Assembly (NCBI RefSeq): GCF_000439085.1
Contig: NZ_AUUA01000001.1
Span: 682,001 to 746,000 of the forward strand
Source: Leminorella grimontii ATCC 33999 = DSM 5078
GTDB taxonomy: Bacteria > Pseudomonadota > Gammaproteobacteria > Enterobacterales > Enterobacteriaceae
Reading direction: 5' to 3'
DNA: 64,000 bases
Position numbers and translations under genes: made by a program. Shown in pieces: positions 43,958-48,793 of the stretch (position 1 is the stretch's first letter; the number at the start of each line of letters is the position of its first letter). Below the pieces are notes generated by a model. The model was not told the origin of the DNA and did no database searches. It saw nothing but the letters and a program-made list of their open reading frames with translations.

Positions 43958-44270
43958 GATTTGCTTCCTTAAGCAGACATTGCGCATTTTTGAGTATTGT
44001 AGCCTTGAATACGAACAGAAAAAACACTACTTTTCACAGGGATTTAAGCCAGGATGCCGATTTTCGCCTATCCTTTAGTGAGTTCGGGCATTCATGCCCC
44101 CGTTCGTTACGATGCTTTTTCCTTTTTTCTCTTTTAATATAGGAAAAAGTTGATAGAATTACCCAATATAACAAAGTTACAACATTTTATTTTCAAATGA
44201 GTCATGACGCATGGCCCTCAATCGCAGGCTATGTCGTCACAGAACTCTACTTTTATAAAAGGAGCAAATA
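43958..44270. other. Intergenic region grxD / sodB
   Basis: This gap of about 313 bp holds both divergent promoters. The sodB side (44110-44270) is AT-rich, and an AAAAGGAG ribosome-binding site lies eight bases before sodB. In E. coli this leader is a RyhB target, but I cannot demonstrate a RyhB pairing site here. Confidence 0.5.
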
Positions 44271-44849
44271 ATGTCGTTTGAATTACCCGCACTGCCTTAT
44301 GCCAAGAATGCCCTGGAACCCCATATCTCCGCAGAAACGCTGGAATACCACTACGGCAAGCACCATAACACTTACGTCGTTAACCTGAACAATCTGGTTA
44401 AAGGCGGCGAGTTTGAAGGTAAATCACTGGAAGAGATTATCATGAAATCTTCCGGCGGCATCTTCAACAACGCGGCTCAGGTTTGGAACCACACCTTCTA
44501 TTGGAACTGTCTGGCGCCTAACGCGGGCGGCGAGCCAACCGGCGCGCTGGCTGACGCTATCAACAAAGACTTCGGTTCTTTCGCCGCATTCAAGGAACAG
44601 TTTACCGACTCTGCCGTGAAGAACTTCGGTTCTGGCTGGACGTGGCTGGTGAAAAAAGCTGACGGCAAGCTGGCTATCGTGAACACTTCGAATGCCGCTA
44701 ACCCGATGACCGACGGCGATAAGCCTCTCCTGACGGCTGACGTTTGGGAACACGCGTACTACATCGACTATCGCAACGCGCGTCCTAAGTATATGGAAAA
44801 CTTCTGGGCGTTGGTTAACTGGGCGTTCGTCGCCAAGAATCTGGGCTAA
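44271..44849 (+). CDS. sodB: Iron superoxide dismutase
   Basis: SodB is a cytoplasmic superoxide dismutase of 192 residues. Metal ligands His27, His74, Asp157 and His161 match E. coli numbering. The outer-sphere glutamine (Gln70 in [11 protein letters not shown]) identifies the iron type over the manganese type. [20 protein letters not shown] and [16 protein letters not shown] are signatures. A strong terminator follows. Confidence 0.98.
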
Positions 44850-44874
44850 TCCCCCTTACCTAACGCTTTAAACG

Positions 44875-44910
44875 AAGCCGCCCTCTTTAGTTAAAGAAGG
44901 CGGCTTTTTT
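44875..44910 (+). terminator. Terminator after sodB
   Basis: AAGCCGCC and GGCGGCTT form the stem base, extended by TCTTTA/TAAAGA near the loop, followed by six T residues. It abuts the end of the kinase gene on the opposite strand. Confidence 0.92.
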
Positions 44911-46025
44911 CATTTATCGTCGACGAAGTACACGACCTCGTGCGCTTCATGCGGCGCCGGAACCTCAAGCTTATCCAGCATCCTGGCAAGCGCCGATTCT
45001 GCAACGGGGTAAGGCCTGTCGGCGTTCTGCTTTTTCCAGCGGGCAAAAGGAACCTCGATGTAAACTATCCTGACCTTTGCCCGATAGGCGACAAACAGTG
45101 AAACCAGCTGTTGGCGAAGCGAATACGTCAGGTTTGTCGCATTCCAGACAAAGTCGCTGCTTTGCCGCAATAGCTCTCTCGCCCGTTCCTTAGCCTGCTG
45201 AACCACCCAGCCGTTAGAGGCTTTGTCATTCGGCTCAATGCGGTGCTGCCGACGGATGTCGTCCAAACTCACGACCGGCATCCCCCGGCAGTATCGGTCC
45301 AGATAGCGATCCTTCCCCATCCCCGGCAGGCCGCACAGCATGGTCACCTGACATTCGCAATCGTCATAAGGTTGATAGTCAGCCTGCCCGCCCTCTTTTG
45401 AAAAGTAGACGAAACGCGCCAACGCAGAAGGAAACTCCCTCGCCTTTTTCCAACAGGCCTGTTCCATACAGTACAGTTCAAAAAGCTCAATACGCTCCAA
45501 AAGCGCCTGTCGGTCCCCACACTCGCGCCCGAGTACGTCAGCTTTAGCCAACGTTGCCAATAGCCCCATATCGCATCGCAGAGATGCCGCCAGCAGCGCT
45601 TTTTGCGGATCGGGCTTTTCCATGATCCACAGCGGCAGCCCGTGATGGCGAACAAGCGCTGCTATCTCTTCACGAAGAGCAAAAGGCGTAGGAACGTCTT
45701 TAAACAGGATCTGCCTGGCGCTAAGCTCGCCTCGTTTCGCATGCCCAGGAGAAACAATAGTGCCGTCTTCATCAATTCGGGTTGTGCTTCTCTTTTCTAC
45801 GTCGTGTAGCGCCGCCGCCGCCCAGAGGACTTCCTGACGCAGCAAAGAAAGCTGCTGATATTCCGGCAGTTCGACTAACGCACGCAGTACGCGCTGCGTA
45901 TGCTCAGCAACGTCGCCCTCGGCGTGATGCTTTGGATCCTGCATAACGCCGTGCATATCGGCAAAAAAAGAAAAGCGCTGCGTTAAGTGGCTCCACGACC
46001 TGTCGTCACTAAAGCGCCAGTTCAT
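44910..46025 (-). CDS. HD-domain / polynucleotide kinase fusion (HD-Pnk-like RNA end-healing enzyme)
   Basis: This 371-residue two-domain protein has an N-terminal HD phosphohydrolase-like domain (about 30-200) with His42, the HD pair His74-Asp75, and HH at 127-128. The C-terminal P-loop kinase domain (about 225-371) has Walker A GLPGMGKD (232-239), SLDDIRR, the polynucleotide-kinase-like WNATNLTYSLR and a lid RPYPVAESALARML. This matches the published HD-Pnk architecture (Runella), a 2',3'-phosphoesterase plus 5'-OH kinase. The start at 46025 has GGGGAGG eight bases upstream and overlaps the RNA ligase gene by 17 bp. The P-loop ends in Asp where Ser/Thr is usual. Substrate is inferred. Confidence 0.85.
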   Translation of the reverse strand: MNWRFSDDRSWSHLTQRFSFFADMHGVMQDPKHHAEGDVAEHTQRVLRALVELPEYQQLSLLRQEVLWAAAALHDVEKRSTTRIDEDGTIVSPGHAKRGELSARQILFKDVPTPFALREEIAALVRHHGLPLWIMEKPDPQKALLAASLRCDMGLLATLAKADVLGRECGDRQALLERIELFELYCMEQACWKKAREFPSALARFVYFSKEGGQADYQPYDDCECQVTMLCGLPGMGKDRYLDRYCRGMPVVSLDDIRRQHRIEPNDKASNGWVVQQAKERARELLRQSSDFVWNATNLTYSLRQQLVSLFVAYRAKVRIVYIEVPFARWKKQNADRPYPVAESALARMLDKLEVPAPHEAHEVVYFVDDK

Positions 46026-46734
46026 GCTCGCCTCCCCGATCGTTACGCTCATAGCGGAGCTGCGCCCTTTTCCAGCTGCGTTTCCAGTGAACGTCGGTCT
46101 TTACGTGATTTTTTCGAACATACTTAAAGACGTTGTGCGCAAATGCCTCTACGGGATATTCATCCTGATTTCGGCTGACAACCCCCTCCATAGAACAGGG
46201 TTGATTTGTATGCGTATCCCACGAATCAAAACCGCTGGGCCCTTGGGACGTTTCAATAATTTGCCGGCTGAACGCGACTCCATCACTGGCGCTGTCGATA
46301 TTAAGCTCGGGTACCCGAGGAAAATCAAACAGGGCCGCGTAAAATCCAACCTCTTCCCAGCTTAGCCAACAGTCTTTGCAGCGTACCGCAAAGACGAAAA
46401 AGTCATGCTCCAAACGGCGGTATTCAATCGAATGAATAGCGTATAAATTTTCACCAAAGATTTCGATGTCGTTTAAGTCGTTCTTAATCAGCGCCCAGCG
46501 CTGACGAATTTTCTGCGTCCACGCCGACTGCGTCGGCGCTGCATGAGAGCGTGCAAATACGCCGTACTTATTCAGGCAGTTGTTTTCGCCGTCCAACTTT
46601 TCGGTATGCACCAATGCCTCAATGCGGGAAACGTCATCCCACCACGTAGGGTTAATGCGATCGTCGCTGGTAGTACCGGGCGAAAACGGATAGTGATAGG
46701 TCCTGCCGTATTTCCTTGATTGTCCATTCATCAT
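46009..46734 (-). CDS. RNA ligase family protein (nucleotidyltransferase superfamily)
   Basis: This 241-residue ATP-dependent RNA ligase-like protein shows the ordered nucleotidyltransferase motifs: I, EKLDG with Lys46 as the predicted adenylation site; Ia, ARSH (61-64); III, IFGEN (92-96); IIIa, FFVFAVR; IV, MEGVV (182-186); V, FKYVRKN (203-209). The start at 46734 has AGGA about eight bases upstream; an upstream TTG at 46806 is much weaker. It is translationally coupled to the HD-kinase gene, giving an end-healing plus end-sealing pair. Its fold group (Rnl2/Rnl5-like or other) and RNA substrate cannot be set from sequence alone. Confidence 0.88.
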   Translation of the reverse strand: MMNGQSRKYGRTYHYPFSPGTTSDDRINPTWWDDVSRIEALVHTEKLDGENNCLNKYGVFARSHAAPTQSAWTQKIRQRWALIKNDLNDIEIFGENLYAIHSIEYRRLEHDFFVFAVRCKDCWLSWEEVGFYAALFDFPRVPELNIDSASDGVAFSRQIIETSQGPSGFDSWDTHTNQPCSMEGVVSRNQDEYPVEAFAHNVFKYVRKNHVKTDVHWKRSWKRAQLRYERNDRGGEHELAL

Positions 46735-46990
46735 GTTTATTCCTATGTCTACGAGTGCGCGCAGTTTCGCCGCGCGGTAGACGCTGTCCTCATGAGTAAT
46801 GGTCAAAAGGCAACTGTGTCTGAAACGAGCGCACGGTCTGTTTACCCAGGCTAGCGGGCTATTTTAACGAGAAAAAAGCGTAATAACGGAGGAGATTAAA
46901 CGCAGTGTAGGTGAAAGCGCGCGAATATTAACAGGATAGAGAGAGGATTGCCAATAGCGGGGAGCACAAATTCTCACCGCTATTGTTCAA
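46735..46990. other. Region upstream of the RNA-repair operon
   Basis: This 256-bp gap lies between the ligase start and the end of ycfH, both on the minus strand. I see no sigma-54 promoter or gene in it. An ATTAAAC-rich stretch lies around 46860-46930. The ycfH block has no obvious terminator here, so read-through into the ligase is possible. Confidence 0.45.
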
Positions 46991-47770
46991 TTACGGCAGT
47001 TCAACCTTAAAAAGCTGACGGAAGTTATGGCTCGTTGCCTGCGCAAACGCTTCAAGCTCAACGCGCTTTAAAACGGCCAGGTATTCGGCCACGTCGCGCA
47101 CGTAGGCGGGGCGATTCTCCTTGCCGCGATGGGGCACCGGCGCTAAATAAGGCGAATCGGTTTCAATCAGCATGCGGTCTAATGGCACGTAGCGCGCCGC
47201 TTCCCTAAGCGCGTCCGCGTTGCGGAACGTCACAATGCCGGAAAACGAAATATAAAAACCAAGATCCAACAGCTGCCTTGCCGTATCGCAGTCTTCGGTA
47301 AAACAGTGCAGTACTCCGCCGCAGTCTCTCGCATTCTCTTCTTTCAGAATAGCGAGTGTATCTTTACGCGCGTCGCGAGTATGAACAATCACGGGCTTAT
47401 TCAACGCATTGCCAACCTGAATATGCTGTCGAAAGCTAAGCTGCTGTAGCGGAATATTATCCTGCTGATAATAGTAATCCAGCCCGGTTTCTCCCAGCGC
47501 CACTACGCGAGAAGCCGCAGCCAAAGCCTGAAGTTGCTCAAGCCGATACGGCTCATCGAGATTTAGCGGATGAACGCCGCAGGAAAGAAAGACGTTCGAG
47601 TACGCAGCGACGCTGTCATAAAGCGCCTGAAAGCCTGGCAACGTTGTAGATACTGCCAGGCAGGCATGAACGTCACGGCGCTTGGCCTCCGCCAGAACGC
47701 CGTTCAGATCGACGCCCTGCTTGTCGAAGTCTAAAGCGTCAAGGTGACAGTGTGAATCAACTAAGTACAT
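46991..47770 (-). CDS. ycfH: TatD-family metal-dependent hydrolase YcfH
   Basis: This 259-residue TIM-barrel metallohydrolase matches E. coli YcfH (265). Metal ligands are in the N-terminal VDSHCHLDALDF, and in ALGETGLDYYY, PVIVHTRDA, LHCFTED and IETDSPYLAPVPHRGKENRP. Relatives are DNases or proofreading nucleases, and the exact substrate is unproven. It follows holB by 27 bp, in the E. coli order tmk-holB-ycfH. Confidence 0.95.
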   Translation of the reverse strand: MYLVDSHCHLDALDFDKQGVDLNGVLAEAKRRDVHACLAVSTTLPGFQALYDSVAAYSNVFLSCGVHPLNLDEPYRLEQLQALAAASRVVALGETGLDYYYQQDNIPLQQLSFRQHIQVGNALNKPVIVHTRDARKDTLAILKEENARDCGGVLHCFTEDCDTARQLLDLGFYISFSGIVTFRNADALREAARYVPLDRMLIETDSPYLAPVPHRGKENRPAYVRDVAEYLAVLKRVELEAFAQATSHNFRQLFKVELP

Positions 47771-47797
47771 AAGAAATATTGCTCAAAGAACCCAACG

Positions 47798-48793
47798 TTA
47801 AGCTAATCCGCTCTCCGTTTGGTTTAACATATTGGTTAATAAAAGCTCGCGATTTATGCCGGCGACCGTCTGCAGTTCGCGCCGACACGCAAGCCAGCGC
47901 TGCGTTATACGGTTAATCTGCCCTGGGGACATAATGACCGCCAATCGCTGTACGGTATCGATCGCATCCTGATTGACAATATAGCTCCCCGCGCCCTGCT
48001 GATGCTTAACGACGTCCAGCAGCAGCGAAACGCTCCAGTGGATGCGCTCGGCCGCATTGTCTTCATTGAGCAGCGGCAAAAGCAGCAGCAAATCGCGCCG
48101 TTCAAAGGCTTCAGCCATCCGCTGACAAATCGCCGCGCGCGCGGCCCAGACGTCAGACGTTAACAGCTGCTGCGCGGCAACGGGCGCGCCGTTGCTTAAT
48201 CGCAGCGCGGTGCGCAGGCTGTCCGGCTGTCCGGCGTTCTGCCGGCGCAGCCACTCAACGCTAAACGCCTCATCCGGACACGCAAGCAGCCAATGCAGGC
48301 ACCGGCTTCGAATGGTCGGCAGCAGCGCAGAAGGCTCGTGACAAGACAGCAAAAAGTAGGTGTGTTCCGGGGGCTCTTCGAGGGTTTTTAGCAGCGCGTT
48401 GGCCGCCGCTTCGCTCAGCCGTTCCGTTTCACGGATCCAGGCGACCTTAACGCCGCCCTGCTGCGCACGGTTGTAGAGCGTTTCCGTCAGCTGGCGCACC
48501 GTTTCAACGCCGATAGCCGTTTTGCCCTTTTCCGGTTCGACAACGTGCCAATCCGGGTGGGTTCCCGCCTTCATCATGTGACAATTATGGCAGACGCCGC
48601 AGGTTTTCTCCCCCTGCGGTTCCTGACACATCAACCAGTATCCCAACGCCTGAACCAGCGGCTCATCGCCGCAGCCAGGGATCGACTGCAGCAGCAGCGC
48701 ATGATGGCTGCGATCGGAGGAGTATTGGGCAACCAGCTGCCGGTATGCAGGGGTCAGCCACGGATACCAAATCACGCGTTTTTCTCCAACCAC
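47798..48793 (-). CDS. holB: DNA polymerase III delta' subunit
   Basis: HolB is part of the clamp-loader complex of the replicative polymerase. It has 331 residues (E. coli 334). The zinc-binding cysteines lie in [10 protein letters not shown] with an upstream cysteine, and the AAA+ fold includes [19 protein letters not shown] and [11 protein letters not shown] (SRC motif). Delta' lacks a functional Walker A, as expected. It overlaps tmk by 22 bp. Confidence 0.95.

What the first reader, a model, noticed from the sequence alone, without database searches (positions are those of the whole stretch)
44910..46734. Two-gene RNA-repair cassette: RNA ligase coupled to an HD-domain/polynucleotide kinase
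The ligase shows motifs I, Ia, III, IIIa, IV and V in order with a candidate adenylated Lys46. The partner joins an HD phosphohydrolase-like domain to a P-loop kinase with a WNATN motif. The genes overlap by 17 bp, so end healing and end sealing are co-expressed. HD-Pnk enzymes from Runella are known, but I do not know of a described function for this pair in enterobacteria. A natural hypothesis is repair of RNAs cut by tRNA- or rRNA-targeting nucleases. The target is inference.
Basis: partly seen in the sequence, partly recalled or inferred. Interest (0 to 1): 0.75.

Follow-up and report, generated by a model that had tools for sequence, protein, structure and literature searches.

The report
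RNA end-repair gene pair in enterobacteria
Two overlapping genes encode enzymes that should trim and rejoin broken RNA ends, and they tend to occur in the same bacteria as a known system that repairs ribosomes cut by toxins, which suggests what this puzzling enzyme pair is for.

Summary
On the minus strand, a 241-aa ATP-dependent RNA-ligase-fold protein (46009-46734; PF09414; TEKLDGEN with Lys46) overlaps by 17 bp a 371-aa HD-Pnk (44910-46025; HD + P-loop kinase). Both parts belong to known families: relatives of Deinococcus radiodurans DRB0100 (33% identity; its adenylated Lys40 aligns with Lys46) and DRB0098 (28%), and of Runella zeae HD-Pnk (52%). The pairing is conserved: 18 of 18 ligases in 198 genomes of the host's family, and the 80 best named loci. 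So it is a new member of a known kind.

What I did not find in the papers I could search is its company. The cassette co-occurs with PrfH, marker of the RtcB2-PrfH system that repairs ribosomes cut by colicin E3: 14 of 18 cassette genomes against 10 of 106 others of at least 3 Mb. A Cas1 control is much weaker, and the link survives a phylogenetic pairs test (median p 0.03). In Serratia, some Bacteroidota and two other genomes the genes are neighbours.

Best reading: a heal-and-seal RNA-repair arm beside RtcB2-PrfH after ribotoxin damage. Activity, target (RNA or DNA) and induction are untested; published Deinococcus work keeps DNA repair a serious rival.

The parts
46009..46734 (-). ATP-dependent RNA-ligase-fold protein, 241 aa, first gene of the cassette
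   Evidence: PF09414; ORF; model pLDDT 90.8; fold match to Naegleria and T4 Rnl2 ligases
46597..46599 (-). codon of Lys46, predicted adenylated lysine of motif I
   Evidence: invariant in 41 rows; aligns with Lys40 of DRB0100
44910..46025 (-). HD-Pnk, 371 aa, second gene (longest ORF runs from 46052)
   Evidence: PF01966 + PF13671; start by ribosome-binding site and relatives; model pLDDT 95.7
45621..45911 (-). HD phosphohydrolase domain as matched by Pfam
   Evidence: residues 48-144 of P0001
44958..45347 (-). P-loop polynucleotide kinase domain as matched by Pfam
   Evidence: residues 236-365 of P0001; fold match to bacterial Pnkp kinase and T4 Pnk
46009..46025 (-). 17-bp overlap of the two reading frames
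   Evidence: sequence
46925..46954 (-). sigma-70-like promoter candidate TTGGCA-18-TAATAT upstream of the ligase
   Evidence: 1 found where shuffles give 1.6 on average, so not evidence of function

Best explanation
A two-enzyme heal-and-seal repair cassette. Steps inferred from homology: (1) the HD domain removes 2',3'-cyclic phosphate, 2'- or 3'-phosphate from the 3' end of a broken strand; (2) the P-loop domain phosphorylates the 5'-OH; (3) the ligase adenylates itself on Lys46 with ATP, passes AMP to the 5'-phosphate and seals the 3'-OH/5'-PO4 break. The physiological substrate is most likely RNA of the translation apparatus (tRNA or rRNA) cut by ribonuclease toxins. The cassette would be a second repair arm beside the RtcB2-PrfH ribosome-rescue system, for breaks that RtcB2 does not seal. 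Shown here: gene structure, conserved catalytic residues, predicted folds, conserved adjacency, co-occurrence and frequent linkage with RNA-repair genes. Shown in print for homologues: adenylation at the equivalent lysine and 5'-kinase activity. Inferred: sealing, RNA as the target, ribotoxin damage as the trigger.
For: Family and motifs. Confident models. Ligase model best matches Naegleria nick-sealing RNA ligase (Z 15.0, 181 aligned, rmsd 3.0) and T4 Rnl2 (Z 14.6), ahead of T4 Rnl1 (Z 11.8) and DNA ligases (Z 11.5 or less). HD part matches a chain titled tRNA processing enzyme, named Poly A polymerase (Z 16.8, 173 aligned, rmsd 3.0); kinase part matches bacterial Pnkp kinase (Z 17.8, 149 aligned, rmsd 2.4), tRNA(Sec) kinase and T4 Pnk. 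Lys46 aligns with adenylated Lys40 of DRB0100 (PMC1997131). Adjacency 18 of 18 and 80 of 80. RtcB, PrfH, KptA or RlaP within about 6 kb in 19 of 80 named loci, 14 genus-level groups, identity confirmed for one representative each. PrfH in 14 of 18 cassette genomes versus 10 of 106 others of 3 Mb or more, Fisher p 4e-9; Cas1 control 12 of 18 versus 43 of 106, p 0.045. Pairs test on an rpoB tree: 6.3 concordant, 0.2 discordant of 9 pairs, median p 0.031; Cas1 2.9 versus 1.8, median p 1. RtcB2-PrfH-ligase-HD-Pnk runs in L224 and Serratia L061 and L065; with KptA and a few other genes in L414. 25 of 49 named cassette genomes carry PrfH, 9 of 10 Enterobacterales; 7 of the 25 within 6 kb.
Against: No activity was measured. 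Purified DRB0100 did not ligate DNA or RNA (PMC1997131, passages), and later work reports DNA end joining with DRB0098 and PprA (PMC5128194, PMC3893189, passages). In the window genome the pair is not next to RtcB2-PrfH: about 634 kb apart on one contig. 4 of 18 sampled cassette genomes (G043, G046, G067, G189) and 24 of 49 named ones lack PrfH over the cut-off; 8 sampled genomes have PrfH with no HD-Pnk match at all. Ligase frames are interrupted or partial in 2 of 18 sampled genomes and partial in L108, L110 and L115 among the 80 while HD-Pnk stays open, so sealing is not always kept. In viral contigs only 10 of 80 ligase loci have HD-Pnk within the held flanks. The pairs-test p ranges from 0.008 to 0.375 over random pairings.
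Confidence: 0.6

Rival explanations
1. DNA strand-break repair: the cassette heals and seals DNA ends after oxidative or radiation damage, as proposed for the Deinococcus DRB0098-DRB0100 operon.
For: The D. radiodurans operon holds the same two families. It is induced by irradiation and its kinase acts on a DNA oligonucleotide (PMC1997131, passages); the ligase is reported active on DNA with PprA and DRB0098 (PMC5128194, passages); HD-Pnk is linked to radiation and mitomycin C resistance (title of Schmier and Shuman 2018, seen only in the reference list of PMC9146567). The window copy sits beside sodB.
Against: No LexA-type CTG-N10-CAG box in the 300 bp before the ligase in the window and in 21 of 22 enterobacterial loci; the one match is 137 bp upstream in Escherichia sp.. 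A DRB0100 disruption was fully radiation-resistant (PMC1978522, passages). Neighbours and co-occurring genes are RNA-repair genes. Ligase fold is closest to nick-sealing RNA ligases.
Confidence: 0.2
2. An anti-phage or counter-defence function: the pair restores tRNAs cut by suicidal anticodon nucleases, as T4 Pnkp and Rnl1 do for the phage (recalled).
For: Homologues of the ligase are in 24 phage records, the 20 listed all over 300 kb; HD-Pnk lies next to the ligase in a 462-kb phage and near it in 10 of 80 viral-contig loci. Mechanism identical at the enzyme level.
Against: No PADLOC match beyond a weak Cas3-type HD hit. In the seven genomes of the host's clade it sits in one stable chromosomal place, tatD-cassette-sodB, not in an evident defence island or prophage. 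Co-occurrence with anticodon nucleases was not tested.
Confidence: 0.12
3. The ligase is not a strand-joining enzyme in vivo but another kind of nucleotidyltransferase (for example an adenylating or capping enzyme), with HD-Pnk as the working repair enzyme.
For: DRB0100 adenylates itself but the purified protein ligated nothing (PMC1997131, passages); motif V is K-x-V-R in place of the recalled KxK; no further domain follows; ligase frame interrupted or partial in some genomes with open HD-Pnk.
Against: Motifs I, Ia, III and IV are invariant, and it comes with an end-healing enzyme that makes exactly ligase substrates.
Confidence: 0.08

Closest known systems
Deinococcus radiodurans DRB0100-DRB0099-DRB0098 operon
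   Same: Same ligase family (33% identity, Lys40 = Lys46), same HD-Pnk architecture (28%), ligase gene first.
   Different: Deinococcus has a TIGR02452 gene (PARG in PMC11833690, passages) between them; the window has none and its frames overlap. The Deinococcus operon is radiation-induced; no SOS-type box was seen here.
Runella-type HD-Pnk (Munir and Shuman 2017, recalled, not seen)
   Same: 52% identity to Runella zeae HD-Pnk, with the same kind of ligase directly upstream.
   Different: Both Runella loci have KptA nearby; the window has not.
RtcB2-PrfH ribosome-repair operon (PMC9223846, passages)
   Same: Tends to be present in the same genomes and in some is the direct upstream neighbour.
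   Different: Unrelated proteins; RtcB-type ligases join 3'-phosphate or cyclic-phosphate to 5'-OH ends without prior healing (established knowledge of RtcB).
T4 RNA ligase 2 / Naegleria RNA ligase
   Same: Nucleotidyltransferase fold (Z 14.6 and 15.0).
   Different: 16-17% identity; the window protein is a bare nucleotidyltransferase domain without the extra domains recalled for these enzymes.
Bacterial Pnkp1-Rnl-Hen1 complex (PMC4411300, start of abstract seen in the listing)
   Same: Kinase domain fold (Z 15.4) and the idea of a repair complex against ribotoxins.
   Different: The 3'-end enzyme here is an HD domain; no Hen1 gene beside the window pair.

Membership tests
HD-Pnk end-healing enzymes | N-terminal HD domain with H...HD...D motif fused to a C-terminal P-loop kinase | tested here: met
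   Pfam HD and AAA_33; invariant H42, H74-D75, D163, G237-K238, D255 in 31 rows; model pLDDT 95.7
HD-Pnk end-healing enzymes | operon-like pairing with a putative ATP-dependent polynucleotide ligase | tested here: met
   17-bp overlap; 80 of the 80 best named loci
HD-Pnk end-healing enzymes | 5'-OH kinase and 2',3'-phosphoesterase activity | not testable with these tools
   homology only; kinase shown for DRB0098 in PMC1997131, its 3'-phosphatase left open there
DRB0100-type ligase family | adenylation domain only, about 210-240 aa, TEKLDGEN, K-x-V-R in motif V, found with HD-Pnk | tested here: met
   33% identity over 227 columns, E 1e-22; shared motifs
DRB0100-type ligase family | self-adenylation on the motif I lysine | not testable with these tools
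   shown for DRB0100 K40 in PMC1997131 (passages)
Rnl2 RNA ligases | nucleotidyltransferase motifs I, Ia, III, IIIa, IV, V in order | tested here: met
   fold match Z 14.6 to T4 Rnl2; motif V differs in form
Rnl2 RNA ligases | C-terminal helical domain of about 90 residues (recalled) | tested here: not met
   protein ends about 30 residues after motif V; no such domain in the model
RtcB2-PrfH system | physical linkage of the cassette to rtcB2-prfH in this genome | tested here: not met
   G000 C1:91396-93050 versus C1:726913-728734; linked in L061, L065 (same place as L219), L224 and L414
Pnkp1-Rnl-Hen1 complex | Hen1 methyltransferase gene beside kinase and ligase | tested here: not met
   window neighbours are Fe superoxide dismutase and a TatD-family hydrolase

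The most novel reading that the evidence does not exclude
HD-Pnk plus its ligase is the missing second arm of the PrfH ribosome-rescue pathway: PrfH empties the jammed ribosome, RtcB2 reseals the colicin E3-type 16S rRNA cut, and HD-Pnk-ligase heals and seals the breaks RtcB2 does not repair, such as anticodon-loop cuts (RtcB2-PrfH gave no protection from colicins D and E5, PMC9223846, passages). This would give a physiological role to an enzyme family so far tied to radiation resistance.
Probability: 0.35. Interest if true: 0.75.

Novelty: new member of a known kind. Interest (0 to 1): 0.52.

Why it matters
HD-Pnk and its partner ligase are widespread, yet their job is disputed: a published knockout and published biochemistry in Deinococcus disagree on DNA repair. 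The link to RtcB2-PrfH in Enterobacterales, where genetics is easy, turns 'what is this pair for?' into a simple test with defined ribotoxins. If the link is right, bacteria keep two chemically different RNA-rejoining routes for toxin damage to the translation machinery.

Tried and rejected
Rfam search of 44000-48000 at gathering scores found nothing. LexA-box scan: negative for the window and 21 of 22 loci. PADLOC: nothing beyond a weak Cas3-HD match. E. coli genomes: no DNA match to the cassette, but that search needs close DNA identity, and a homologue exists in Escherichia sp. (L071). PDB sequence search found no close solved relative of the ligase and, for HD-Pnk, kinases and an HD-bearing poly A polymerase. 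RtcA as a second RNA-repair marker: 5 of 198 genomes, 4 of them with the cassette, but all four lie in the host's clade and the pairs test is uninformative. Co-occurrence with anticodon nucleases was not tested. The first rpoB tree had 8 rows on the wrong strand; it was discarded and rebuilt. The tree holds 120 of the 124 genomes of 3 Mb or more; G028, G069, G147 and G162 were left out: two had their rpoB match in pieces, one was not in the listed rows and one (G069) I passed over. PrfH matches in G012 and G042 are partial and were counted as present. In the phylum sample I took as full-length HD-Pnk only the 6 matches over 300 bits that span both domains; most of the 212 matching genomes show HD-only or kinase-only matches.

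Papers: searches for HD-Pnk + ligase, RNA ligase + polynucleotide kinase + HD domain + operon (28), Runella slithyformis + polynucleotide kinase (29), RNA-repair terms, DRB0098 (36), end-healing terms (42), PrfH + RtcB (102), PrfH + polynucleotide kinase (103) and DRB0100 (119) showed no paper linking HD-Pnk to PrfH in the listings or the passages seen. Burroughs and Aravind 2016, the likeliest place, is not held, so 'not in print' is not claimed. Twelve papers were opened, as passages only (PMC1997131 also as outline and abstract); none was read whole.

Full report
1. What is there. On the minus strand between a TatD-family hydrolase gene and the (plus-strand) Fe superoxide dismutase gene lie two overlapping genes. 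The first, 46009-46734, encodes a 241-aa protein matching Pfam RNA_ligase. The second, 44910-46025, encodes a 371-aa protein with an HD domain and a P-loop kinase domain. The mechanical ORF starts at 46052, but the ATG at 46025 has a strong ribosome-binding site and matches the start of relatives.

2. Residues and folds. In 41 ligase rows (homologues 34-74% identical to the window) Y9, R11, H14, S18, D25, K46, D48, G49, N51, R62, E95, H101-I103, E183-G184, K204, V206, R207, H210 and others are invariant. In 31 HD-Pnk rows (28-68%) Q29, H34, E36-G37, H42, H74-D75, K78, H95, G99, H128, D163, G237-K238, D255, R258, R304, N334, R337 and others are invariant. AlphaFold2 models are confident. The ligase model is closest to Naegleria RNA ligase and T4 Rnl2 and is a bare nucleotidyltransferase domain. 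The HD half resembles the HD region of a tRNA-processing enzyme (I recall an A-adding enzyme) and the kinase half the bacterial Pnkp kinase and T4 Pnk.

3. Adjacency. In 198 genomes of the host's family, as the tool groups it, HD-Pnk is found in 21 (one a 90-residue fragment, G082; one a weak HD-only match, G081) and the ligase in 18; all 18 ligases lie beside HD-Pnk. G151 has HD-Pnk with only a divergent ligase directly upstream (E 7.5e-7). All 80 have the ligase upstream on the same strand: 68 with frames that can overlap, 8 within 60 bp, 4 further apart (66, 138, 157 and 786 bp). These 80 are the closest relatives, so the figure does not describe remote ones. Of nine loci from plasmid and phage records (L041-L049) the ligase profile found a partner in 5 (L041, L042, L043, L047, L049); annotation names an RNA ligase close upstream in two more (L046, L048); none was seen beside L044 and L045. 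Ligase frames are partial in L108, L110 and L115 and interrupted in G143 and G180/Budvicia, with HD-Pnk open.

4. Evolution. Enterobacterial sequences form one side of a branch in both trees (HD-Pnk 100/96, ligase 99/97), placed among Bacteroidota sequences. This suggests one old transfer between the phyla; the trees are rooted at the midpoint, so the direction is not proven. In all seven sampled genomes of the host's clade (Budvicia and Limnobaculum among the named records) the cassette has the same place, tatD-cassette-sodB (only part of sodB is in the stretch held for G060). In Klebsiella, Phytobacter and Escherichia sp. it lies elsewhere, with an MFS transporter gene on one side and luxS on the other.

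5. RNA-repair company. Clustering of flanking proteins and searches with representatives (identities) found RtcB in 11, PrfH in 7, KptA in 6 and RlaP in 3 of 80 named loci; 19 of 80 have at least one, in 14 genus-level groups. PrfH over its cut-off occurs in 25 of 49 searched cassette genomes, one match each (9 of 10 Enterobacterales, 16 of 39 others; L075 was not searchable), and 7 of these 25 lie within 6 kb of the cassette. By chance, with a 12-kb target in genomes of 4-11 Mb, far fewer than one would be expected (my estimate). L224 shows rtcB2-prfH-ligase-HD-Pnk in one run. L414, from another family of the order, has KptA and NADAR genes upstream and two other genes between prfH and the ligase.

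6. Co-occurrence without linkage. In the 198-genome sample PrfH is over cut-off in 24: 14 of 18 cassette genomes and 10 of 180 others (Fisher p 5e-12). For genomes of at least 3 Mb it is 14 of 18 and 10 of 106 (p 4e-9), and by genus 12 of 14 and 10 of 81 (p 8e-8). Only 2 of the 14, G078 and G148, have it within the 8-kb flanks. Two of the ten others, G151 and G082, carry HD-Pnk or a fragment of it. The control Cas1 gives 12 of 18 and 43 of 106 (p 0.045), and is itself associated with PrfH (17 of 55 and 7 of 69, p 0.005), so some background association exists. On an rpoB tree of 120 genomes, independent pairs differing in the cassette go the same way for PrfH in 6.3 and the other way in 0.2 of 9 (median p 0.031, range 0.008-0.375); for Cas1 2.9 and 1.8 (median p 1). 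In 299 genomes of the phylum, 6 have full-length HD-Pnk and 12 PrfH, 5 both; outside the host family it is 2 of 3 and 7 of 284 (p 0.003).

7. Host. The window genome (G000, 4.2 Mb) holds rtcB2-prfH on the same contig about 634 kb away (C1:91396-93050) and a second RtcB (C1:877494-878621).

8. Comparison with what is known. Deinococcus DRB0100 and DRB0098 are the characterised homologues. From passages of PMC1997131: DRB0100 adenylates itself, K40A abolishes this, no ligation of DNA or RNA was seen, and DRB0098 is a 5'-kinase. From passages of PMC5128194 and PMC3893189: LigB (DRB0100) was reported active with PprA and DRB0098. From passages of PMC1978522: a DRB0100 disruption was radiation-resistant. 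From passages of PMC9223846: RtcB2-PrfH protects E. coli from colicin E3 but not from the tRNA-cutting colicins D and E5. From passages of PMC6514570: PrfH-RtcB is predicted to rescue ribosomes attacked by RNases. Munir and Shuman 2017 on Runella HD-Pnk is recalled only.

9. Verdict. The cassette is real, conserved and of a known kind. Its membership in the HD-Pnk and DRB0100-type ligase families is well supported; its membership in Rnl2 proper is not. The new element is the association with RtcB2-PrfH and other RNA-repair genes, which favours RNA of the translation machinery as the target but does not prove it.

Noticed in passing
L039/L040 (G143, same genus) and L006/L028 (G180) with named L051 (Budvicia): The ligase gene is interrupted (two overlapping pieces in G143; an in-frame TAG near the start in G180/Budvicia) while HD-Pnk stays open: 2 of 18 sampled cassettes. 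Sequencing error is not excluded.
   Followed up: partly
L414:8667-15837 (G204): A dense RNA-repair island on one strand: NADAR, KptA, RtcB2, PrfH, a proteasome-fold protein, a small phosphatase-like protein (my reading), ligase, HD-Pnk, with a second RtcB further along.
   Followed up: partly
L224:6526-7788: In G148 the rtcB2-prfH-ligase-HD-Pnk run is next to a baseplate-hub (GPD, VgrG-like) gene (PF05954), hinting at a phage-tail or type VI secretion neighbourhood.
   Followed up: no
L225:6961-9032, L415, L416, L047: A second HD-Pnk branch (about 40% identity or less) has a much more divergent ligase directly upstream, so partner ligases have been swapped or have diverged strongly.
   Followed up: partly
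L042:4868-7077: Ligase homologues in phage records sit in very large phages (the 20 listed of 24 are all over 300 kb); a 462-kb phage carries ligase and HD-Pnk side by side, the ligase with an extra N-terminal part of about 140 residues, perhaps HNH-like (Pfam found only RNA_ligase).
   Followed up: partly
L057 and L058: Xenorhabdus vietnamensis carries two copies of the cassette on two contigs with the same profile scores.
   Followed up: no
NZ_OL790811.1 and NZ_OL790812.1: Two 4-Mb Proteus mirabilis records are filed as plasmids in the plasmid collection; they look like chromosomes.
   Followed up: no
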